DNA of 64,000 nt from Corallium rubrum. Lineage: Eukaryota > Cnidaria > Anthozoa > Scleralcyonacea > Coralliidae. A program made the position numbers and the translations under genes. Shown piece by piece: positions 24,668 through 56,391 of the stretch. The stretch is from NCBI GenBank assembly GCA_964035015.1, contig OZ036005.1:10362012-10426011 (forward strand). Direction: 5' to 3'. Within the stretch, counting starts at the first letter, position 1, and every line of letters begins with the position of its first letter. The notes beneath the pieces are model-generated. The model was not told the DNA's origin and searched no databases. It saw only the letters and a list, made by a program, of their open reading frames with translations.

Positions 24668-24931
<264 letters not shown>

Positions 24932-24965
24932 AGTAATTGATGAATTTCATTCAGATTGTTCCAAG

Positions 24966-25005
24966 CTACACTGATGAGCTGTAGTACAGCGAAACACGTG
25001 TCTGT
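24966..25005 (+). ncRNA. Hammerhead ribozyme, type I, copy 1 (family 1)
   Basis: Core CUGAUGA (24971-24977), stem II GCTGT/ACAGC with loop AGT (24978-24990), then GAA plus A15.1 (24991-24994). Helix III is the self-complementary ACACGTGT, ending in the GUC cleavage triplet at about 25002. Helix I pairs CTACA (24966-24970) with TGTAG just after the cleavage site. All conserved core positions are present. The minimal palindromic helix III suggests cleavage as a dimer of two ribozymes, as known for other short-helix-III hammerheads. Confidence 0.9.
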
Positions 25006-25241
25006 AGATTGAACTATGTACGCTCCTTCACTTCGGTGTTGTTGAGCACTCTGTGAAGTTGCCGTGGGTACCTATTAGCGATAATGCAACGCTCACTACC
25101 CTTGTGGAAGTTTGAGCACTCTGGGCCCATGCGCACTTCACGCTATCTGAATGTACTTCACCGATGCTGTCCCACATGCGGTTGTCACCGACGATCGCAT
25201 GTGTATAAGTAATTGATGAATTTCATTCAGATTGTTCCAAG

Positions 25242-25281
25242 CTACACTGATGAGCTGTAGTACAGCGAAACACGTGTCTGT
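25242..25281 (+). ncRNA. Hammerhead ribozyme, type I, copy 2 (family 1)
   Basis: Identical in core, stems and cleavage triplet to copy 1, 276 bp downstream (CUGAUGA at 25247). Cleavage at both copies would release a unit-length 276-nt RNA. Confidence 0.9.
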
Positions 25282-25287
25282 AGATTG

Positions 25288-25866
<579 letters not shown>

Positions 25867-28281: not shown

Positions 28282-29166
28282 AGACATAGTTTAACGCTAC
28301 TCTGGCTTAAAAGTTTTTTGAACGTAGCTTAAAAAGTTACTGTTCATGACCCAACGTTTCGACACTACGATCTAGTGTCTTCATCAGGGGTGATCGTTGT
28401 GAAGACGGGTTCGATATTTACACTCTCATAGAACCACTGATGATGTTATCTATCAGCAAGATGCAAATAGGGAAAAAGTAATACGTGCAAAACCAACCAT
28501 GCGATTGCGTGGGATAATTCAAAAATTATCACTACCAACCATGGTACGACCAAAGACGTTGTTCGAAAGCTTGGCACATCTATACGCATAAAAATCTCGC
28601 AAGTTGTTACAGCATTGTTGCCTGAACAATGCTGTAACAACTAGCAACAATGCTGTAACAACTTGTTGACATATGTGAACAACATTGATAAATGAACAAC
28701 ACTATTCATCATTGTTTCAACAAGTTGTTACTGCTTGATGAAACAACAACCGTTGTTCACGCATGTTGTACCAACCGAAGGAAGTGTTGATACATCAACC
28801 ATGTTCACCATTGTTGTAACATTGTTGTTCATCATTGTTATTTCGTCATGCTGTTACAACATGTTGTATCATGTGCGAACAACGTTGTTGGCTATCAAAA
28901 ATGTGCTGTTGGAACAACTTGTTCATGACTGTTGATTTATCCGTGAACAAGTTGTTTGAATCATAAGTGAACAAATTGCTGACAACTTGTTCACGGCGAG
29001 CAGCACAACATTGTTCACGGCGAGCAGGACAACATGCTCCATTAAATCGTCATGACGGCGGTCTAGTACCGGAAACCTATTTGCATCTTGTTGATAGGTA
29101 ACGTCATCAATGGTTCTGTTCAAAAAAACTTTTTTAAAAGCCATCTGGAGTACGTTAAACTATGTC
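28282..29166. mobile_element. Inverted-repeat element with internal GTTGTT-rich repeats and hammerhead-like core
   Basis: The ends mirror each other: GACATAGTTTAACGCTACTC versus the inverted 3' end, and GATGCAAATAGG (28457 region) versus 29081-29092. The interior (28600-29050) is built of degenerate AACAATGTTGTTCA-type words, as in the ends of the 3.75-kb element at 35248. The minus strand at about 28360-28398 carries CUGAUGA, a long stem II and GAAACG. Confidence 0.6.
28358..28400 (-). ncRNA. Hammerhead-like core, uncertain type
   Basis: Minus strand: CTGATGA, stem II GACACTA / TAGTGTC, then GAAACG. The stem II pairing and spacing are good, but helix I and a clear cleavage-site helix are not found, so it may be a decayed ribozyme or chance. 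Confidence 0.35.

Positions 29167-29923: not shown

Positions 29924-29929
<6 letters not shown>
29167..29929. repeat. Intergenic with (TTTA)n and (TTAA)n-type tracts
   Basis: (TTTA)n and (ATTA)n occur at 29414-29476, and repeated TTAATTAATTTTCTAATTAA words at 29838-29925. No gene seen. Confidence 0.7.

Positions 29930-29976
<47 letters not shown>
29930..29976. repeat. (AT)n microsatellite
   Basis: Left flank of the second retrozyme. Confidence 0.95.
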
Positions 29977-30020
29977 CTACAGACGGTACCGTTTCGGCCT
30001 TTCGGGCCTCATCAGTGTAG
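29977..30020 (-). ncRNA. Hammerhead ribozyme, type I, copy 1 (family 2)
   Basis: On the minus strand: CTACA, CUGAUGA, stem II GGCC-CGAAA-GGCC, GAA, a self-complementary helix III ACGGTACCGT, then the cleavage C and TGTAG closing helix I. The predicted cut lies between plus-strand positions 29981 and 29982. Every core position is canonical. Confidence 0.92.
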
Positions 30021-30205
30021 TGCTGATGAGCAGGATGAAGGTAACTGCTTATGAGTCACCTTTGATGTCTCACAAAATGTGGGAAATCAAAACCATGCCA
30101 GAGCGCTCAAACTGCAAGCAGTGAGCGTGCGCACAATGCGTAAGCGGCAATGGCTCATCCTGTAGAGCGCTCAATATGACCTAAAGGTCATAGAGCGATA
30201 TCTAA

Positions 30206-30249
30206 CTACAGACGGTACCGTTTCGGCCTTTCGGGCCTCATCAGTGTAG
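30206..30249 (-). ncRNA. Hammerhead ribozyme, type I, copy 2 (family 2)
   Basis: Identical to copy 1, 229 bp away; together they delimit a unit-length 229-nt RNA. Confidence 0.92.
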
Positions 30250-30429
30250 TGCTGATGAGCAGGATGAAGGTAACTGCTTATGAGTCACCTTTGATGTCTC
30301 ACAAAATGTGGGAAATAAAAACCATGCCAGAGCGCTCAAACTGCAAGCAGTGAGCGTGCGCACAATGCGTAAGCGGCAATGGCTCATCCTGTAGAGCGCT
30401 CAATATGACCTAAAGGTCATAGAGCGATA

Positions 30430-30433
<4 letters not shown>

Positions 30434-30461
<28 letters not shown>
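30434..30461. repeat. (AT)n microsatellite
   Basis: Right flank of the second retrozyme. Confidence 0.9.
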
Positions 30462-39506: not shown

Positions 39507-39679
39507 TTAAGAAACCACTGTGAAGTATGCACCACATTCAGCCTTCGATTCAAGCCTTCGATTCGGCCTTCGATTCAGCCGTCGATTCAATTATCGCATG
39601 TTATTGCGAAGTTATCTCCATATTCATCAGGTGGTCGCTATAACAGAATATCATACAAATACACAATTTTCTCAGGCGC

Positions 39680-41890
39680 TATTCTATAGGATTTCTTCAA
39701 ATTAACATATCTTGTACAGAATTTCATGCTCTTTCATCTAGTATAAGTCTCCAGAGTAGCAAAGACCCATGGACGACGTAGGCAAGCTTTAAACAAATTG
39801 CGGCGCAGCGGTATTAATACGACTGACGGGGTTGTGTTGTATATTGCATACACATCAGATTATAAACACAATTTTCTCAGCTGCTATTCTATACGATCTT
39901 CTAAAATTTACATATACTGTAGAGAATTTCATGCTCTTTCATCTAGTGTAAGTCTCCAGAGTGGCATAGACCCATGAACGACGCAGGCAGGCTTTAATTA
40001 AACAAATTGCGGCGCGGTGTAATTAATACGACCGACCGGGCTTGTGTTGGCAGTTGTATATTGCATATACATCAGATATAAACACAATTTTCTCAGCCGC
40101 TATTCTATACGATTTTTTTTAATTTACATATGTTGTAGAGAATTTCAAGCTCTTTCATGTAGTATAAGTCTCCAGAGTGGCATAGACCCATGAACGACAC
40201 AGGCAAGCTTTAAACAAATTGCGGCGCGGTGTACGTAATTAATACGACTGACGGGGCTTCTGTTGACAGTTGTATATTACATATACATCAGATATAAACA
40301 CAATTTTCTCAGCCGCTATTCTATACGATTTTTTAAAATTTACATATGTTGTAGAGAATTTCATGCTCTTTCATGTAGGGTAAGTCTCCAGAGTGGCATA
40401 GACCCATGAACGACGCAGGCAAGCTTTAAACAAATTGCGGCGCGGTGTTATTAATACGACTGACGTGGGTTGCCTTGAATGTTTCAGATTACATCGGAAA
40501 AAGTACAATTTTCTCAGCCGCTATTTTATACGATTTTTTTTAATTTACATATGTTGTAGAGAATTTCATGCTCTTTCATCTAGTGTAAGTCACCAGAGTG
40601 GCATAGACCCATGAACGACGCAGGCAAGCTTTAAACAAATTGCGGCGCGGTGTTATTAATACGACGGACGTGGGTTGCCTTGAATGTTTCAGATTACATC
40701 GGAAAAAGTACAATTTTCTCAGCCGCTATTCTATACGATTTTTTTTAATTTACATATGTTGTAGCGAATTTCATGCTCTTTCATCTAGTATAAGTCTCCA
40801 GAGTGGCATAGACCCAGGAACGACGCAGGCAAGCTTTAAACAAATTGCGGCGCTGTGTTATTAATACGACTGACGGGGGTTGTTTTGTATATTGCATATA
40901 CATCAGATATAAACACAATTTTCTCAGCCGCTATTCTATACGATTTTTTTAAATTTACATATGTTGTAGAGAATTTCAAGCTCTTTCATGTAGTATAAGT
41001 CTCCATAGTGGCATAGACCCATGAACGACACAGGCAAGCTTTAAACAAATTGCGGCGCGGCCAGTACCTAATTAATACGACTGAGGGGGCTTCTGTTGAC
41101 AGTTGTATATTACATATACATCAGATATAAACACAATTTTCTCAGCCGCTATTCTATACGATTTTTTTAAATTTACATATGTTGTAGAGAATTTCATGCT
41201 TTTTCATCTAGTATAAGTTTCCAGAGTGGCGTAGACCCATGAACGACGCAGGCTAGCTTTAAACAAATTCCGGCGCGGTGTTATTAATACGACTGACGGG
41301 GCTTGCCTTGAATGTTTCAGATTACATCGGAAAAAGTACAATTTTCTCAGCCGCTATTCTATACGATTTTTTTAAATTTACATATGTTCTAGAGAATATC
41401 ATGCTCTTTCATCTAGTATAAGTCCCCAGAGTGGCATAGACCCATGAACGACACAGGCAAGCTTTAAACAAATTGCGGCGCGGTGTTATTAATACGACTG
41501 ACCGGGGTTGCCTTGAATGTTTCAGATTACATCGGAAAAAGTACAATTTTCTCAGCCGCTATTCTATACGATTTTTTTAAATTTACATATGTTGTAGAGA
41601 ATTTCATGCTCTTTCGTCTAGTTTAAATCTCCAGAGTGGCATAGACAAATGAACGACGCAGGCAAGCTTTAAACAAATTGCGGCGCTGTGTTATTAATAC
41701 GACTGACGTGGGTTGCCTTGAATGTTTCAGATTACATCGGAAAAAGTACAATTTTCTCAGCCGCTATTCTATACGATTTTTTTAAATTTACATATGTTGT
41801 AGAGAATTTCATGCTCTTTCATCTAGTATAAATTTCCAGAGTGGCATAGACCCATGAACGACGTAGGGAAGCTTTAAACAAATTGCGGCG
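39680..41890 (+). repeat. ~207-bp satellite array, left arm (about 10 monomers)
   Basis: Monomer landmarks: AAGCTTTAAACAAATTGCGG, TTATTAATACGACTGACG, TTTTCTCAGCCGCTATTCTA, TTTACATATGTTGTAGAGAA, CTCCAGAGTGGCATAGACCC. Two types alternate irregularly: one with GATTACATCGGAAAAAGTAC and one with CATATACATCAGATATAAAC before the shared TTTTCTCAGCC. Confidence 0.95.
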
Positions 41891-42985: not shown

Positions 42986-45900
42986 CATTACTCGGTAAAT
43001 TTGTTTAAAGATTGTCTATTTGCCTGGTTCGTTCATGGGTATTACCATTCTGGAGATTTATACTAAATTAAAGAGCTTGAAATTCTCTACAACATATGTA
43101 AATTAAAAAAAATCGTATAGAATAGAGGCTGAGAAAACTGTACTTTTTCCGATGTAATCTGAAACATTCAAGGCAACCCCCGTCCGTCGTATTAATAACA
43201 CCGCGCCGCAATTTGTTTAAAGCTTGCCTGCGTCGTTCATGGGTCTATGCCACTCTGGTGACTTATACTAGATGAAAGTGCATGAAATTCTCTACAACAT
43301 ATGTAAATTAAAAAAAATCGTATAGAATAGCGGCTGAGAAAATTGTACTTTTTCCGATGTAATCTGAAACATTCAAGGCAAGCCCCGTCAGTCGTATTAA
43401 TAACACCGCGCCGCAATTTGTTTAAAGCTTGCTTGCGTCGTTCATGGGTCTATGCCACTCTGGAAACTTATACTCCATGAAAGAGCATGAAATTCTCTAC
43501 AACATATGTAAATTTGAAAAAATCGTATAGAATAGCGGCTGAGAAAATTGTGTTTATATCTGATGTATATGCAATATACAAAACAACACCCGTCAGTCGT
43601 ATTAATAACACCGCGCCGCAATTTGTTTAAAGCTTGCCTGCGTCGTTCATGGGTCTATGCCACTCTGGAGACTTATACTACATGAAAGAGCTTTAAATTC
43701 TCTACAACATATGTAAATTTAAAAAAATCGTATAGAATAGCGGCTGAGAAAATTGTGTTTATATCTGACGTATATGCAATATACAAAACAACCCCCGTCA
43801 GTCGTATTAATAACACCGCGCCGCAATTTGTTTAAAGCTTGCCTGCGTCGTTCATGGGTCTATGCCACTATGGAAACTTATACTAAATGAAAGAGCATGA
43901 AATTCTCTACAACATATGTAAATTAAAAAAAATCGTATAGAATAGCGGCTGAGAAAATTGTACTTTTTCCGATGTAATCTGAAACATTCAAGGCAACCCC
44001 GGTCCGTCGTATTAATAACACCGCGCCGCAATTTGTTTAAAGCTTGCCTGCGTCGTTCATGGGTCTATGCCACTCTGGTGACTTATACTAGATGAAAGAG
44101 CATGAAATTCTCTATAACATATGTAAATTTAAAAAAATCGTATAGAATAGCGGCTGAGAAAATTGTACTTTTTCCGATGTAATCTGAAACATTCAAGGCA
44201 ACCCACGTCAGTCGTATTAATAACACCGCGCCGCAATTTGTTTAAAGCTTGCCTGCGTCGTTCATGGGTCTATGCCACTCTGGAGACTTACACTACATGA
44301 AAGAGCATGAAATTCTCTACAACATATGTAAATTTAAAAAAATCGTATAGAATAGCGGCTGAGAAAACTGTACTTTTTCCGATGTAATCTGAAACATTCA
44401 AGGCAACCCCCGTCCGTCGTATTAATAACACCGCGCCGCAATTTGTTTAAAGCTTCCCTGCGTCGTTCATGGGTCTATGCCACTATGGAGACTTATACTA
44501 GATGAAAGAGCATGAAATTCTCTACAACATATGTAAATTAAAAAAAATCGTATAGAATAGCGGCTGAGAAAATTGTACTTTTTCCGATGTAATCTGAAAC
44601 ATTCAAGGCAACCCACGTCCGTCGTATTAATAACACCGCGCCGCAATTTGTTTAAAGCTTGCCTGCGTCGTTCATGGGTATATGCCACTCTGGTGACTTA
44701 CACTAGATGAAAGAGCATGAAATTCTCTACAGCATATGTAAATTTAAAAAAATCGTATAGAATAGCGGCTGAGAAAATTGTACTTTTTCCGATGTAATCT
44801 GAAACATTCAAGGCAACCCCGGTCCGTCGTATTAATAACACCGCGCCGCAATTTGTTTAAAGCTTGCCTGCGTCGTTCATGGGTCTATGCCACTCTGGTG
44901 ACTTATACTAGATGAAAGAGCATGAAATTCTCTATAACATATGTAAATTTAAAAAAATCGTATAGAATAGCGGCTGAGAAAATTGTACTTTTTCCGATGT
45001 AATCTGAAACATTCAAGGCAACCCACGTCAGTCGTATTAATAACACCGCGCCGCAATTTGTTTAAAGCTTGCCTGCGTCGTTCATGGGTCTATGCCACTC
45101 TGAAAACTTATACTAGATGAAAGAGCATGAAATTCTCTACAACATATGTAAATTTAAAGAAATCGTATGGAATAGCGGCTGAGAAAATTGTGTTTATATC
45201 TGATGTATATGCAATATACAACTGTCAACACAAGCCCTGTCAGTCGTATTAATTACGTACACCAGGCCGCAATTTGTTTAAAGCCTGCCTGCGTCGTTCC
45301 TGGGTCTATGCCACTCTGGAGACTTATACTGCAAATTTAAAAAAATCGTATAGAATAGCGGCTGAGAAAATTGTACTTTTTCCGATGTAATCTGAAACAT
45401 TCAAGGCAAGCCCCGTCAGTCGTATTAATAACACCGCGCCGCAATTTGTTTAAAGCTTGCTTGCGTCGTTCATGGGTCTATGCCACTCTGGAAACTTATT
45501 CTCCATGAAAGAGCATGAAATTCTCTACAACATATGTAAATTTGAAAAAATCGTATAGAATAGCGGCTGAGAAAATTGTGTTTATATCTGATGTATATGC
45601 AATATACAAAACAACACCCGTCAGTCGTATTAATAACACCGCGCCGCAATTTGTTTAAAGCTTGCCTGCGTCGTTCATGGGTCTATGCCACTCTGGAGAC
45701 TTATACTACATGAAAGAGCTTGAAATTCTCTACAACATATGTAAATTTAAAAAAATCGTATAGAATAGCGGCTGAGAAAATTGTACTTTTTCCGATGTAA
45801 TCTGAAACATTCAAGGCAACCCCCGTCAGTCGTATTAATAACACCGCGCCGCAATTTGTTTAAAGCTTGCCTGCGTCGTTCATGGGTCTATGCCACTCTG

Positions 45901-48900
45901 GAGACTTATACTACATGAAAGAGCTTGAAATTCTCTACAACATATGTAAATTTAAAAAAATCGTATAGAATAGCGGCTGAGAAAATTGTGTTTATATCTG
46001 ACGTATATGCAATATACAAAACAACCCCCGTCAGTCGTATTAATAACACCGCGCCGCAATTTGTTTAAAGCTTGCCTGCGTCGTTCATGGGTCTATGCCA
46101 GTATGGAGACTTATACTAAATGAAAGAGCATGAAATTCTCTACAACATATGTAAATTAAAAAAAATCGTATAGAATAGCGGCTGAGAAAATTGTACTTTT
46201 TCCGATGTAATCTGAAACATTCAAGGCAACCCCGGTCCGTCGTATTAATAACACCGCGCCGCAATTTGTTTAAAGCTTGCCTGCGTCGTTCATGGGTCTA
46301 TGCCACTCTGGAGACTTATACTAAATGAAAGAGCTTGAAATTCTCTACAACATATGTAAATTTAAAAAAATCGTATAGAATAGCGGCTGAGAAAATTGTG
46401 TTTATATCTGACGTATATGCAATATACAAAACAACCCCCGTCAGTCGTATTAATAACACCGCGCCGCAATTTGTTTAAAGCTTGCCTGCGTCGTTCATGG
46501 GTCTATGCCAGTATGGAGACTTATACTAAATGAAAGAGCATGAAATTCTCTACAACATATGTAAATTAAAAAAATCGTATAGAATAGCGGCTGAGAAAAT
46601 TGTACTTTTTCCGATGTAATCTGAAACATTCAAGGCAACCCCGGTCCGTCGTATTAATAACACCGCGCCGCAATTTGTTTAAAGCTTGCCTGCGTCGTTC
46701 ATGGGTATATGCCACTCTGGTGACTTATACTAGATGAAAGAGCATGAAATTCTCTATAACATATGTAAATTTAAAAAAATCGTATAGAATAGCGGCTGAG
46801 AAAATTGTACTTTTTCCGATGTAATCTGAAACATGCAAGGCAACCCCCGTCAGTCGTATTAATAACACCGCGCCGCAATTTGTTTAAAGCTTTCCTGCGT
46901 CGTTCATGGGTCTATGCCACTCTGGAAACTTACACTACATGAAAGAGCATCAAATTCTCTACGACATATGTAAATTTTAAAAAATCGTATAGAATAGCGG
47001 CTGAGAAAACTGTACTTTTTCCGATGTAATCTGAAACATTCAAGGCAACCCCCGTCCGTCGTATTAATAACACCGCGCCGCAATTTGTTTAAAGCTTCCC
47101 TGCGTCGTTCATGGGTCTATGCCACTATGGAGACTTATACTAGATGAAAGAGCATGAAATTCTCTACAACATATGTAAATTAAAAAAAATCGTATAGAAT
47201 AGCGGCTGAGAAAATTGTACTTTTTCCGATGTAATCTGAAACATTCAAGGCAGCCCACGTCAGTCGTATTAATAACACCGGGCCGCAATTTGTTTAAAGC
47301 TTGCCTGCGTCGTTTATGGGTCTATGCCACTCTGGAGACTTACACTACATGAAAGAGCATGAAATTCTCTACAACATATGTAAATTTAAAAAAATCGTAT
47401 AGAATAGCGGCTGAGAAAATTGTACTTTTTCCGATGTAATCTGAAACATTCAAGGCAACCCCGGTCCGTCGTATTAATAACACCGCGCCGCAATTTGTTT
47501 AAAGCTTGCCTGCGTCGTTCATGGGTCTATGCCACTCTGGTGACTTATACTAGATGAAAGAGCATGAAATTCTCTATAACATATGTAAATTTAAAAAAAT
47601 CGTATAGAATAGCGGCTGAGAAAATTGTACTTTTTCCGATGTAATCTGAAACATTCAAGGCAACCCACGTCAGTCGTATTAATAACACCGCGCCGCAATT
47701 TGTTTAAAGCTTGCCTGCGTCGTTCATGGGTCTATGCCACTCTGAAAACTTATACTAGATGAAAGAGCATGAAATTCTCTACAACATATGTAAATTTAAA
47801 AAAATCGTATGGAATAGCGGCTGAGAAAATTGTGTTTATATCTGATGTATATGCAATATACAACTGTCAACACAAGCCCCGTCAGTCGTATTAATTACGT
47901 ACACCAGGCCGCAATTTGTTTAAAGCCTGCCTGCGTCGTTCCTGGGTCTATGCCACTCTGGAGACTTATACTGCAAATTTAAAAAAATCGTATAGAATAG
48001 CGGCTGAGAAAATTGTACTTTTTCCGATGTAATCTGAAACATTCAAGGCAACACCCGTCAGTCGTATTAATATCACCGCGCCGCAATTTGTTTAAAGCTT
48101 GCCTGCGTCGTTCATGGGTTTATGCCACTCTGGTAACTTATACTAGATGAAAGAGCATGAAATTCTCTACAACATATGTAAATTTTAAAAAATCGTATAG
48201 AATAGCAGCTGAGAAAATTGTACTTTTTCCCATGTAATCTGAAACATTCAAGGCAACCCATGTCAGTCGTATTAATAACACCGCGCCGCAATTTGTTTAA
48301 AGCTTTCCTGCGTCGTTCATGGGTCTATGCCACTCTGGAAACTTATACTAGATGAAAGAGCATGAAATTCTCTACAACATATGTAAATTTTAAAAAATCG
48401 TACAGAATAGCGGCTGAGAAAATTGTGTTTATATCTGATGTATATGCAATATACAAAACAACCCCCGTCAGTCGTATTAATAACACGGCGCCGCAATTTG
48501 GTTAAAGCTTGCCTGCGTCGTTCATGGGTCTATGCCACTCTGGAGACTTATACTACATGAAAGAGCTTGAAATTCTCTACAACATATGTAAATTTAAAAA
48601 AGTCGTATAGAATAGCGGCTGAGAAAATTGTACTTTTTCCGATGTAATCTGAAACATTCAAGGCAAGCCCCGTCAGTCGTATTAATAACATCGCGCCGCA
48701 ATTTGTTTAAAGCTTGCCTGCGTCGTTCATGGGTCTATGCCACTCTGGGAACTTATACTAGATGAAAGAGCATGAAATTCTCTACAACATATGTAAATTT
48801 TAAAAAATCGTATAGAATAGCGGCTGAGAAAATTGTGTTTATATCTGATGTATATGCAATATACAACTGTCAACACAAGCCCCGTCAGTCGTATTAATTA

Positions 48901-49690
48901 CGTACACCGCGCAGCAATTTGTTTAAAGCTTGCCTGTGTCGTTCATGGGTCTATTCCACTCTGGAGACTTACACTACATGAAAGAGTTTGAAATTCTCTA
49001 CAACATATGTAAATTAAAAAAAATCGTATAGAATAGCGGCTGAGAAAATTGTGTTTATATCTGATGTATATGCAATATACAACTGTCAACACAAGCCCCG
49101 TCAGTCGTATTAATTACGTACACCGCGCCGCAATTTGTTTAATTAAAGCCTGCCTGCGTCGTTCATGGGTCTATGCCACTCTGGAGACTTACACTAGATG
49201 AAAGAGCATGAAATTCTCTACAGTATATGTAAATTTTAGAAGATCGTATAGAATAGCAGCTGAGAAAATTGTGTTTATAATCTGATGTGTATGCAATATA
49301 CAACACAATCCCGTCAGTCGTATTAATACCGCTGCGCCGCAATTTGTTTAAAGCTTGCCTACGTCGTCCATGGGTCTTTGCTACTCTGGAGACTTATACT
49401 AGATGAAAGAGCATGAAATTCTCTACAGTATATGTAAATTTTAGAAGATCGTATAGAATAGCAGCTGAGAAAATTGTGTTTATAATCTGATGTGTATGCA
49501 ATATACAACACAACCCCGTCAGTCGTATTAATACCGCTGCGCCGCAATTTGTTTAAAGCTTGCCTACGTCGTCCATGGGTCTTTGCTACTCTGGAGACTT
49601 ATACTAGATGAAAGAGCATGAAATTCTGTACAAGATATGTTAATTTGAAGAAATCCTATAGAATAGCGCCTGAGAAAATTGTGTATTTGT
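42986..49690 (-). repeat. ~207-bp satellite array, right arm (about 32 monomers, inverted)
   Basis: Same monomer as the left arm in reverse complement. A truncated monomer (ACTTATACTGCAAATTTAAA) occurs at 45327 and again at 47966, and the surrounding monomers match too, giving a higher-order block of about 2.64 kb. A second block recurs at about 2.03 kb (43441 and 45478). The last two monomers (49240-49600) are nearly identical to each other. Confidence 0.95.
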
Positions 49691-50716: not shown

Positions 50717-52445
50717 GGTGAGAAATCAACTTGTTTTTAAAGTGGTTAATGATTTCCCTCTCAAATTCTTCCCATTCTAACCTTATGATGCATTTTCCGT
50801 GGTTTAATGTTTTGCATTCTGCAGTATTACTGTAAACTTCTAATCGTTGTGTGTAGCAATTATCTGGATAAACTAGATAATCTAGACAATTGCTGATAGA
50901 TACAACTATCATGCTTGGGGGGAGGGGGGGGGGGGGGGGGTGTCAATTTTTTAACACAAACACTCTTGTTTCCTTTACTTACTGCGTATCCCAAATTTAA
51001 TAAAATTGTGAATAAAGCTAGCTTAAAATTTATTATTCAATAACAATCTTGTATTTTTCTTTGTATTAAGGTAAAATCAAGATAATTTATTGGATTGCCT
51101 CCTGCTCAGCCTCCAGAATCTATTGATAAATTTGGTATATAATTGGTCAAATGTTCAAATATTTCTATTTTATCAAATAAAGTGTATTTCCTGTATCCTC
51201 AATGTATATGTAAATAAGGAACTTGAATAAAATTAAAATGTTTTATCTCAATATTGATCTTGGTTACTTCTAAAGTGCTACTGTATTGACACTGATACAG
51301 GTATTCAATCAGGGGCATTGTTAACATTTTGACATTGGTCCAACATTTTTCAGTGATGCACCCCCCTGTCTGCCAAGAAAATGTCAACTTTGGCACATTT
51401 AGAGGGCATCAGAAAAGTTACTGTACTAGAAGTTACTACCGCAAGTGAAGTGCTGCCTCGAAAGGGGCAAAAACCTTTAGCCTACTCCACAGGCAAATAT
51501 CTGCAGTCTGTGACCAATGTGACACCCCTCTTGCCCACTCCACCCAAGATTACCCACACCACCCAAGATTGCTCACACCACTCAAGACTGCCCCCTCTAC
51601 CCAAGATTACCCACACCACCCAAGATTTCCCACTTCACCCAAGATTGCCCATTCCATCCAATTTTTTCTCACCTCTTCACCATAAGAGCCCACAGAGTTG
51701 CCTTTCGAAGAAGACTGGGAAGTCCAAAAATGTAATATTAATTACAATAGCCAGAGTATTCACACATCTCTTCTATATTTTTTAATTATAAGATTTTTAA
51801 TTATAAGATTGAATTATAAGATTACAACAAGGGTTTTGACAGGATATACACATAATTAAATAATTGTCAATGCAATTCCAAGTGCTTAATATGTTTTGAC
51901 AAATCAAGAGCTTTAATAAAATTATACAGCAATGTACCATTGAGCCCATCACATTATTTTGTAGAATTCGTATAAGTCAAAATAAACACACGCAGATAGT
52001 AGCGTCTGATCAGAATGCTGATCAGTGTAAAATGCAAACACAAATACACAATGAACCCACACCAATATACACCTAAAAATAGAAGAAAACAACTGAAATC
52101 TCCTACAAAGAAACAGAGTTGTCAGTTGTAGAAATTGATATCTTACCTCGACAAGATAAACTCTCCCCACCGAAATTGTAAGACAGTTCACAAGTGTGTT
52201 CAGAGGTTAGAGAACAAGAACGATTCATTGCCAATTTAGAAAATCCATCGCCGTCGTGGTGTTTACAAACTTCAAACGTGCATGCAATTTGTAAGAGCAA
52301 ATCCTTCTGGCGTATGTGATGTAAGTTGTAGAAAGAAACTTTTACGTCACAAAACGTCATAAAATGGTCAACATACAAATAAATAAACCGAGTCATCTTC
52401 GGAACAATCATCGGGATTCGGATTTTTGTACTCGGATTTTTCAAA
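50717..52445. other. No gene seen; minisatellite and G run
   Basis: A G run at 50917-50940. A CCAAGATTACCCACACCACC-type minisatellite (about six units) at 51535-51662 makes the 134-codon ORF over it unreliable. A TTATAAGATT triplication is near 51784-51820. Confidence 0.45.
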
Positions 52446-52525
52446 ATGGCGGCCACAATTTCAATCCAAGGAGTGAGCGAGTGGCAAAAATTCTGCGAAG
52501 ACAATAGACGCCTCAATGAAGAACA
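52446..52525 (+). other. Host-like first-exon fragment with splice donor
   Basis: ATGGCGGCC start, about 80 bp coding, then donor CAAA|GTAAGA. The sequence also exists inverted at about 56526-56596 with short deletions (28 bp missing) that disrupt the frame, so this locus is the better preserved of two copies. Function unknown. Confidence 0.5.
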
Positions 52526-53621
52526 AAGTAAGAATGCCCTAATTAGCATGGTGCATAGCTGGTCTAAAGCGACTGACGGAAGTGGTGCAGATGTCAGAGT
52601 ATTTGCTCTGGACTATAAGAAAGCTTTTGATTTCATAGACCACAATTTGTTAATTTCCAAACTTCGTGGTTATGAAATCAACCCTCGCATCATAAATTGG
52701 ATATTAGATTTCCTAAAAAATAGGAAACAAAGAGTGAAGTTGGGTCGAGACTGTTACTCCGAATGGGGTACAGTACCAGCAGGAGTTCCCCAAGGAACAA
52801 AACTTGGACCCTGGCTTTTCGTAGTCATGATCAACGATCTTGAAGCGCCTTCAGCAAATGATCTGCTAAAATACGTCGACGACTCCACATTTTATGAAGT
52901 CATCAAAAAGGGTGAATCAAGCACGGCACAGATACCAATGAATGAGATCCAACAATGGTCAAACACAAACAAGTTCCAGCTACATCCAACAAAATCCAAA
53001 GAACTGTGTATCTCCTTCACCCGTATAAAACGGCATCACATCCCAGTCACTATTGGAAATAATTCAGTCGAACTTGTTAAATCAATAAAGATTCTAGGAG
53101 TAACGGTTCAAGACGATCTTAAGTGGAACTTACACGTTGATACTTCGATAAAAAAAGCAGCAAAGAGATTATATTTTTTGGTTAAACTGAAACGCGCAAA
53201 TGTTCCAGTTAAGCAACTAACAAACTTTTATGTTGCATGCATAAGAACTGTTCTATTATACGCTTGTCAAGTGTTTCACCACAGCCTACCTGAATATCTT
53301 AGTATAAATATGGAACGAATCCAAAAGAGAGCCATGCGGATCATACATGGTTATGACACACCTTACGAACAAGCCTTAGCGACCTCTAGAATTCCCAGTC
53401 TATCTCAACGTAGGGATGAACTTTGCTCCACCCTTTTCGACAAAATTGTCGTGCAACAAGAAGAACAACTATATAAGTATCTACAGCCAAATACTAGAGA
53501 AGATAAAGTGAACCTCCGAAGAAAGCGTCCCTTCGTGATCCCACGTTGCAAAACGAATAGATTTAAAAATACATTTTTGAACGCAAGTGCTATAAACTAC
53601 AACAAGATTCATTCCTTGTAA
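52446..53621 (+). pseudogene. Chimeric ORF: captured host-type exon start fused in frame to a 5'-truncated LINE reverse transcriptase
   Basis: Residues 1-27 (MAATISIQGVSEWQK... to LNEEQ) come from a host-like first exon whose donor AAA|GTAAGA is read through as Ser-Lys. From residue 30 the sequence is a LINE reverse transcriptase: motif A LDYKKAFD (D56), motif B GVPQGTKLGP (113-122), motif C YVDD (143-146), then a thumb and the C-terminal RFKNTFL...INYN common to CR1/L2-type LINEs. The endonuclease, ORF1 and the first fingers motifs are missing. All catalytic aspartates remain and no stop interrupts the fragment. The pre-insertion state is visible in the inverted copy at 56448-56606. Confidence 0.85.
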
Positions 53622-56221: not shown

Positions 56222-56342
56222 TAACTACAGATGGTACCGTTTCGGCCTTTTGGGCCTCATCAGTGTAGTGCTGATGAGCAGGATGACGGTAACTCCTATT
56301 TACAGTCACCTTTGGGGCCTCACAAATTGTGGGACATCAAAA

Positions 56343-56344
<2 letters not shown>
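56222..56344 (-). mobile_element. Truncated retrozyme, family 2
   Basis: About half a unit of the family-2 retrozyme, ending ATCAAAACC directly at an (AT)n tract. It differs from the 29977 copies at several sites (CAGATGG, CCTTTTGGG, GATGACGG), so it is an older or separate lineage. Confidence 0.85.
56225..56268 (-). ncRNA. Hammerhead ribozyme, type I (family 2, variant)
   Basis: Minus strand: CTACA, CUGAUGA, stem II GGCCC-AAAA-GGCC, GAA, ACGGTACCAT, C, TGTAG. The core is intact; helix III has one change that breaks the perfect palindrome (ACCAT instead of ACCGT), which may weaken dimer pairing. Confidence 0.85.

Positions 56345-56391
<47 letters not shown>

What the first reader, a model, noticed from the sequence alone, without database searches (positions are those of the whole stretch)
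29977..30433. Second retrozyme family: exact dimer of a 229-bp unit with two minus-strand hammerheads
Both units carry a perfect hammerhead (stem II GGCC-CGAAA-GGCC, palindromic helix III ACGGTACCGT, helix I CTACA/TGTAG). The near-identity of the units and the dimer form suggest reverse transcription of a circular or multimeric RNA and a recent insertion.
Basis: partly seen in the sequence, partly recalled or inferred. Interest (0 to 1): 0.87.

Follow-up and report, generated by a model that had tools for sequence, protein, structure and literature searches.

The report
Ribozyme-bearing mini-retroelement in TA repeats
A tiny gene-less mobile element that probably cuts its own RNA sits here as two copies inside a TA repeat, and the way its many genomic copies end suggests how such elements are pasted into animal chromosomes, probably by borrowed Penelope-type machinery.

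Summary
A 229-bp unit occurs twice in tandem at 29977-30433 (one internal difference), with two minus-strand hammerhead motifs of identical core. It is a non-LTR retrozyme of the kind published for corals and other animals (PMC7229834), so the element itself is a new member of a known kind. It is not unique: 640 hammerhead matches (up to 3 mismatches) lie in the same genome.

The new part is the junctions. In 49 of 55 loci (52 with three near variants read by eye) the RNA-sense 3' end is fixed about 8 nt past the predicted ribozyme cut and runs into a (TA)n tract. The 5' end varies; copies hold 0.35 to 4.15 units. A second family shows the same kind of end. Of 17 non-internal loci in a later sample 16 agree. 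A Penelope-like element (PLE) with long open frames ends the same way beside its own hammerhead, though only 15 of 74 copies of its tail do so exactly.

Best explanation: (TA)n-primed reverse transcription starting inside a re-ligated circular RNA, probably by PLE enzymes. Circularity, self-cleavage and the enzyme are inferred, not shown.

The parts
29977..30433 (-). retrozyme insertion, about two tandem 229-bp units (RNA sense on the minus strand)
29982..30210 (-). the one complete monomer between the two predicted hammerhead cleavage sites (229-nt RNA, 5' end at 30210)
   Evidence: sequence; predicted circular minimum-energy fold -80.2 kcal/mol against shuffles -57.2 +/- 4.7
29977..30020 (-). 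hammerhead motif nearest the RNA 3' end; predicted cleavage between 29982 and 29981
30206..30249 (-). second hammerhead motif; predicted cleavage between 30211 and 30210
29974..29981 (-). last 8 nt of the insertion (TGTAGTTA) = inferred start point of reverse transcription, next to (TA)n
   Evidence: same junction in 49 of 55 loci by pattern, 52 of 55 with three variants by eye; 246 exact copies genome-wide
29928..29975 (.). (TA)24 tract at the 3' (RNA sense) end = inferred target, overlapping the junction by two bases
30427..30460 (.). (TA)n tract at the 5' (RNA sense) end, overlapping the TA-rich first bases of the unit
24930..25292 (+). other retrozyme family, 276-bp unit, about 1.3 units, two hammerheads (predicted cleavage after 25002 and 25278), lying in (AT)n/(TA)n and ending GTCTGTAGATTGAACTA|TATATA
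   Evidence: 290 such 3' ends and 74 internal junctions in the genome
56222..56346 (-). 5'-truncated, about half-unit, diverged copy of the 229-bp family with the same 3' end (a short TATATA follows, then other sequence)
28353..28387 (-). Penelope-type minimal hammerhead motif (CTGATGA...CGAAACGTT), probable remnant of a PLE end

Best explanation
This is a non-autonomous, non-LTR retrozyme. Its minus-strand transcript cuts itself at GUC^UGUAG (inferred from the motif). The 229-nt monomer is re-ligated into a circle (inferred from published work on relatives). The circle is copied at a (TA)n microsatellite: a nicked TA strand pairs with the TA-rich segment UGUAGUUAGAUAU just past the sealed cut and primes reverse transcription from that fixed internal point (inferred from the junctions). 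The enzyme runs round the circle for part of a turn up to about four turns and stops at varied points, some of them preferred. A stop back at the TA-rich segment gives whole-number copies such as the dimer here. The enzyme is probably that of a Penelope-like element, because a PLE of this genome with long open frames ends in the same way beside its own hammerhead. Shown: fixed 3' end, (TA)n context, variable 5' end, unit numbers. Inferred: circularity, PLE agency, self-cleavage.
For: 3' end: 69 locus rows were examined and 14 repeats of a locus dropped; of the remaining 55, 49 meet the junction pattern and three more (L014, L029, L036) are near variants by eye. (TA)5 or longer lies at the 3' boundary in 51 of 55 and at the 5' boundary in 45 of 55, against 88 of 8931 sampled window positions. 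Later sample: of 20 exact-core loci, 3 are internal junctions and 16 of the other 17 enter (TA)n within 14 nt of the cut; the last is TA-rich. Four of the 20 had already been visible; without them it is 14 of 15. Genome-wide: 246 exact 3' ends, 217 exact internal junctions, reversed controls 0. A unit without overall similarity shows the same kind of end: 290 ends, 74 internal junctions (similarity). The template must bridge the cut: the start point lies 3' of the cleavage site, so a cleaved linear monomer could give only a few nt. Circle: copies share a 5' stop but differ by whole turns (0.41/1.41/1.41; 0.61/3.61; 0.68/2.72/3.72; 1.03/2.03/2.03/3.03/3.03); shared stops exceed chance (28 pairs against 6.5 expected, 0 of 20000 simulations; without phases 0-9, 14 against 4.1, 6 of 20000). 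Units of one locus differ by a median of 1 change (21 pairs), units of different loci by 7 (1155 pairs). PLE: a terminal copy ends CTTGAAGTTTATA|(TA)n while its tandem junction reads CTTGAAGTTTATAGTAAC; a purified anole PLE protein starts reverse transcription internally, downstream of its hammerhead, at AT-rich targets (PMC11167929, parts 1-2 of 4 read).
Against: No RNA data: neither the circle nor cleavage was observed. Uncleaved multimeric transcripts would also carry the intact junction, and some shared 5' stops have the same unit number (L016 and L018, both 1.83). L034, L041 and L073 do not fit: L041 is an inverted tail-to-tail copy, and none of the three has (TA)5 at the 3' boundary. In the anole PLE the start site is not homologous to the cut DNA and ribozyme cleavage was not needed (PMC11167929). 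In the PLE family tested only 15 of 74 tail copies run directly into (TA)5; 44 continue with template sequence and 15 do neither. The gapped PLE-tail search is ambiguous against its control (see Tried and rejected). Retrozymes are hardly enriched next to GIY-YIG genes (2 of 85 and 0 of 96 within 2 kb; random means 0.12 and 0.13, with a partial gene list). Covariation was not found (no two-sided change in 30 distinct monomers, which vary little). LINEs of this genome were not surveyed.
Confidence: 0.72

Rival explanations
1. Same element and same (TA)n-primed internal start, but the template is an uncleaved multimeric transcript of a genomic array, not a circle.
For: Such transcripts keep the junction intact; genomic arrays of several units exist (about nine units of the 276-bp family at C1:65968846-65971348). 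Two loci share both the 5' stop and the unit number (L016, L018).
Against: Shared 5' stop points with different whole-turn numbers are natural for a circle. Relatives in the coral A. millepora are abundant as circles (PMC7229834). Whether copies share an upstream flank of a source locus was not tested; TA flanks would hide it.
Confidence: 0.15
2. The (TA)n-primed copying is done by a LINE-type enzyme, not by a PLE.
For: LINEs also use target-primed reverse transcription and leave 5'-truncated copies; [quoted passage not shown] a reverse-transcriptase frame, LINE-like by my reading, lies in the window at 52383-53621.
Against: A circle has no 3' end, and internal initiation beside a hammerhead is reported for a PLE (PMC11167929); here a PLE shows the same end type at (TA)n. 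LINE ends were not examined here.
Confidence: 0.15
3. Ordinary satellite DNA that spreads by unequal exchange; the hammerhead is incidental.
For: Tandem arrangement of near-identical units.
Against: Dispersed as 0.35-4.15 units with one fixed end and a variable other end; 13 of 55 loci hold less than one unit.
Confidence: 0.03
4. The (TA)n is not the target but a tail made by the enzyme at the 3' end.
For: Several copies have (TA)n only on the 3' side (L009, L024, L028, L040, L042, L051, L054); LINEs often carry AT-rich microsatellites near their 3' end (PMC8969392, passage).
Against: The 5' boundary also has (TA)n in 45 of 55 loci, and two families without overall similarity lie close together more often than chance (6 of 85 within 2 kb, random mean 0.21).
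Confidence: 0.1

Closest known systems
Metazoan non-LTR retrozymes (coral Acropora millepora, mussel, axolotl; PMC7229834, parts 1-4 of 6 read)
   Same: Type I hammerhead, 220-245-bp units in coral, tandem copies from dimers upward, GC under 50%, strong predicted self-pairing, many dispersed copies
   Different: Species of this window not identified. The text read mentions target-site duplications longer than 4 bp when present, and describes no fixed 3' end and no (TA)n insertion. Here the predicted fold pairs the catalytic core in a hairpin, whereas the paper says that most metazoan retrozyme circles let the ribozyme fold freely
Penelope-like elements with minimal hammerheads (PMC11167929, parts 1-2 of 4; PMC3846280, passages)
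   Same: Type I hammerhead upstream of the inserted 3' end, internal start of reverse transcription, AT-rich targets, 5' truncation, tandem copies
   Different: PLEs encode reverse transcriptase and GIY-YIG endonuclease; the retrozyme has no frame of 130 aa or more and its hammerhead is not the minimal form
Plant LTR retrozymes (PMC4918200, search listing and start of abstract only; described in PMC7229834 and in passages of PMC7761336)
   Same: Non-autonomous hammerhead retroelement thought to pass through a circular RNA
   Different: Type III hammerheads inside LTRs, about 600-1000 bp between ribozymes, with primer-binding site and polypurine tract

Membership tests
metazoan non-LTR retrozyme | type I hammerhead with complete catalytic core and open helix I | tested here: met
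   CUGAUGA, GAA, A-U at the base of helix III and cleavable GUC, with helices I, II, III, in both units (motif rules recalled)
metazoan non-LTR retrozyme | short tandem units (about 150-450 bp) from dimers upward | tested here: met
   229-bp unit; 0.35-4.15 units per locus in 55 loci, 13 of them under one unit
metazoan non-LTR retrozyme | dispersed multicopy element | tested here: met
   640 core matches with up to 3 mismatches, reversed control 0
metazoan non-LTR retrozyme | no protein coding; GC under 50% | tested here: met
   no stop-to-stop frame of 130 aa or more there (shorter frames not examined); GC 48.9%
metazoan non-LTR retrozyme | highly self-paired circular RNA | tested here: met
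   prediction only: -80.2 against -57.2 +/- 4.7 kcal/mol, 0 of 200 shuffles as low
metazoan non-LTR retrozyme | absence of LTR, primer-binding site and polypurine tract | not tested
   not searched for
metazoan non-LTR retrozyme | linear and circular RNA in tissue; self-cleavage in vitro | not testable with these tools
   needs RNA
metazoan non-LTR retrozyme | loop 1 - loop 2 tertiary contacts of the canonical ribozyme | not tested
   secondary structure only
Rfam hammerhead models | gathering score reached | tested here: not met
   Hammerhead_HH9 21.9 and 20.3 bits, gathering 52; no hammerhead at gathering in the window; so not filed under an Rfam family
Penelope-like element | encodes RT and GIY-YIG endonuclease | tested here: not met
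   no frame of 130 aa or more in the unit
plant LTR retrozyme | type III hammerhead inside LTRs | tested here: not met
   helix I is the open helix (sequence), that is type I

The most novel reading that the evidence does not exclude
Animal retrozymes are passengers of Penelope-like elements: a sealed ribozyme circle is engaged at a TA-rich segment beside the cut, primed by a nicked (TA)n microsatellite, and copied round and round, so that the number of units in an insertion counts the turns of the enzyme, and every copy longer than about 1.2 units can release a new circle.
Probability: 0.55. Interest if true: 0.75.

Novelty: new member of a known kind. Interest (0 to 1): 0.6.

Why it matters
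Who mobilises animal retrozymes, and from which RNA form, is an open question; [quoted passage not shown] The junctions give such a signature: fixed internal start, (TA)n target, hammerhead just upstream, shared by two retrozyme families without overall similarity and by a PLE in the same genome. That makes the PLE hypothesis directly testable in vitro and by surveying other animal genomes.

Tried and rejected
Satellite-DNA reading rejected (one fixed end). The covariation test of the circular fold gave nothing: 0 two-sided, 37 one-sided and 47 non-pairing cells (the last including gaps) in 30 distinct monomers. No sequence kinship between the two retrozyme families or with the PLE stretches compared, beyond a 13-base piece of the ribozyme and one 16-base stretch at 94% between the two families. 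No exact match to a 31-base ribozyme core in viral contigs. Co-location with GIY-YIG genes on C1 and C8 was too weak to support PLE agency. The gapped search for CGAAACGTT followed by (TA)8 gave 71 forward and 339 reverse matches against 80 and 8 in the reversed control. The gap lets one locus count many times on one strand, so I read the like-for-like pairs as 71 against 8 and 339 against 80; that pairing is my inference, and the raw forward numbers show no excess.

Literature: searches (open-licence PubMed Central only) showed in their listings, and in the passages I opened, nothing on (TA)n insertion of retrozymes. Two relevant papers (doi msu232, PMC8557442) are not held and no supplement could be read, so I do not claim it is unpublished. 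Of PMC11722881 and PMC8969392 I saw passages.

Full report
What is there. The repeat at 29977-30433 is real: two 229-bp units, one internal difference (30088 C, 30317 A), lying between (TA)24 at 29928-29975 and a (TA)n tract at 30427-30460. Read on the minus strand each unit carries a type I hammerhead with complete core, stem II GGCC/GGCC, the self-complementary helix III ACGGUACCGU and helix I CUACA/UGUAG (motif rules recalled). Rfam's hammerhead models notice both copies but far below their gathering score (21.9 and 20.3 bits, gathering 52). The unit between the two predicted cuts is 229 nt, 48.9% GC. As a circle it is predicted to be strongly self-paired: -80.2 kcal/mol against -57.2 +/- 4.7 for 200 shuffles, none as low.

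It is a dispersed family. The window belongs to a 474-Mb genome of 312 contigs, unnamed. The unit gives 92 scored hits although only 40 of 499 candidates were scored. The 34-base ribozyme core gives 640 matches with up to three mismatches (the tool gives 320 on each strand) and none for the reversed control. Size and form agree with the retrozymes of the coral Acropora millepora, 220-245 bp, dimers to 62-mers, seen there as linear and circular RNA (PMC7229834; parts 1-4 of 6 of the text read). I did not identify the species here.

How copies end. I aligned a tandem of the unit to 69 locus rows: the window, 38 loci from the best unit hits, and the 30 exact-core loci that cut out, all on C1. Fourteen repeats of a locus were dropped, leaving 55; where a stretch held two copies only the best was scored. 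In RNA sense the 3' end is ...ACCGTC^TGTAGTTA|(TA)n or a close register of it in 49 of 55 by pattern; L014, L029 and L036 are near variants, and L034, L041 and L073 do not fit. (TA)5 or longer lies at the 3' boundary in 51 and at the 5' boundary in 45 of 55; at sampled window positions the rate is 88 of 8931. The 5' end falls all round the unit, and the length runs from 0.35 to 4.15 units (median 1.41; 33 of 55 at least 1.2 units; 13 under one unit). Twelve of 55 5' ends fall at positions 0-9 of the unit (2.4 expected), which gives nearly whole-number copies such as the dimer here; those positions are the TA-rich segment itself.

Tests of the pattern. A later sample took 20 exact-core loci on contigs C12-C20 from the list that had not been fetched. 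Three are internal junctions, 16 enter (TA)n within 14 nt of the cut, and one is TA-rich but less regular. It was not wholly blind: two of the 20 were already listed as ends and two as internal junctions; without these four, 14 of 15 ends agree. Genome-wide, the exact 3' end occurs 246 times and the exact internal junction 217 times. On contig C1, of 56 exact internal junctions 14 are followed one unit on by another and 24 by an exact (TA) end, 18 by neither exact form; none of 56 exact 3' ends is followed by an exact internal junction within 260 bases. The 276-bp family, which also lies in this window (24930-25292), shows 290 ends of the form GTCTGTAGATTGAACTATATATA and 74 internal junctions. 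On C1 and C8, ends of the two families lie within 2 kb of each other more often than chance: 6 of 85, random mean 0.21.

What the junctions say. The fixed start lies 3' of the cleavage site. A self-cleaved linear monomer begins at UGUAG, so a start there could copy only a few nucleotides; the template must have the cut intact or sealed again. The primer is most simply the (TA)n strand itself, which can pair with UGUAGUUAGAUAU; the small scatter of the start in the later sample (after TGTA, TGTAG, TGTAGT, TGTAGTTA, TGTAGTTAGT) fits pairing in several registers. Copies sharing the same 5' stop but differing by whole turns (0.41/1.41/1.41, 0.61/3.61, 0.68/2.72/3.72, 1.03/2.03/2.03/3.03/3.03) fit repeated passage round a circle past preferred stopping points; one pair (L016, L018) shares both stop and unit number. 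An uncleaved multimer is not excluded. Units within a locus differ by a median of 1 change (21 pairs), between loci by 7 (1155 pairs), in a sample biased to close relatives of the query.

Who does it. The genome holds many GIY-YIG matches (143 from 150 scored of 1845 candidates), among them a tandem PLE on C49 with two open frames of 830 aa. Its last copy ends ...GCCGAAACATGTTTACATTAAAAAAGTTTGTCGTTTACTTGAAGTTTATA|(TA)n beside a minimal hammerhead, while the junction between two tandem copies reads ...CTTGAAGTTTATAGTAAC. So this PLE copy too ends at an internal TA-rich point just downstream of its hammerhead, at a TA tract. Genome-wide, its tail occurs 74 times: 44 continue with template sequence (tandem junctions or a longer tail, as in L039), 15 run straight into (TA)5, 15 do neither. 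Other PLE-type hammerheads with recurrent tails also run into (TA)n, with the control problem told in Tried and rejected. In L030 a broken PLE with RT and GIY-YIG pieces sits in the TA tract directly beside a retrozyme. An anole PLE protein starts reverse transcription internally, at AT-rich targets, but at a site not homologous to the cut DNA and without need of ribozyme cleavage (PMC11167929; parts 1-2 of 4 read). Penelope elements are said to favour simple AT-rich targets (PMC3846280; passages). Cervera and de la Pena proposed PLEs as partners because both carry type I hammerheads, occur in tandem and co-exist; the junctions add a mechanistic parallel. Against this: proximity to GIY-YIG genes is weak (2 of 85 and 0 of 96 within 2 kb), LINE ends were not surveyed, and AT-rich microsatellites are also common near LINE 3' ends (PMC8969392, passage).

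How it would then work. An insertion of about 1.2 units or more holds two cleavage sites and could release one exact monomer whatever flanks it, so 5' truncation is harmless (inference); 33 of 55 loci pass that length. What drives transcription of the copies is unknown. The predicted fold pairs CUCAUCA with the core UGAUGAG in a 7-bp hairpin, kept in 29 of 30 distinct monomers, the other lacking part of the segment. The ribozyme-competent fold of a 100-nt stretch is 6.8 kcal/mol weaker before tertiary contacts. That hairpin could keep circles from re-opening, but this is only a prediction.

Verdict. Observation confirmed; interpretation supported; the element is a new member of a known kind. 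The value lies in the insertion signature, which I did not find described in the papers I could search (calls listed in Tried and rejected).

Noticed in passing
window 24930-25292: Second retrozyme family (276-bp unit, plus strand), about 1.3 units in a TA tract, with its own fixed 3' end (290 such ends in the genome; 74 internal junctions).
   Followed up: yes
window 56222-56346: Diverged half-unit copy of the 229-bp family with the same 3' end; the cleavage triplet reads ATC; Rfam Hammerhead_3 32.8 bits, below gathering 48.5.
   Followed up: partly
window 28353-28387: Penelope-type minimal hammerhead on the minus strand, 1.6 kb from the retrozyme, probably a PLE remnant; its TA-rich end seems to have taken a short inverted-repeat DNA element.
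   Followed up: partly
window 39650-41890 and 43020-49684: Long arrays of a 205-bp tandem repeat; the consensus units of the two sides read as reverse complements, and matching sequences near 39630 and 49715 lie in opposite orientation. No CTGATGA or CTGAAGA motif was listed inside the arrays.
   Followed up: no
L041 1520-2480 (approximate): Retrozyme array followed by an inverted partial copy; both outer ends stop at the same point of the unit (AAAGGCCGAAAC) beside TA tracts.
   Followed up: partly
G000 PLE copies listed: Of 15 PLE ends running into (TA)5, 10 have, by my reading of the coordinates, an oppositely oriented partner end within 8 kb that carries the longer tail instead (for example C49:7322728 and C49:7330189).
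   Followed up: partly
window 29982-30210, minus strand: Predicted 7-bp hairpin that pairs the catalytic core with the segment just upstream, a possible off-switch in the circle.
   Followed up: partly
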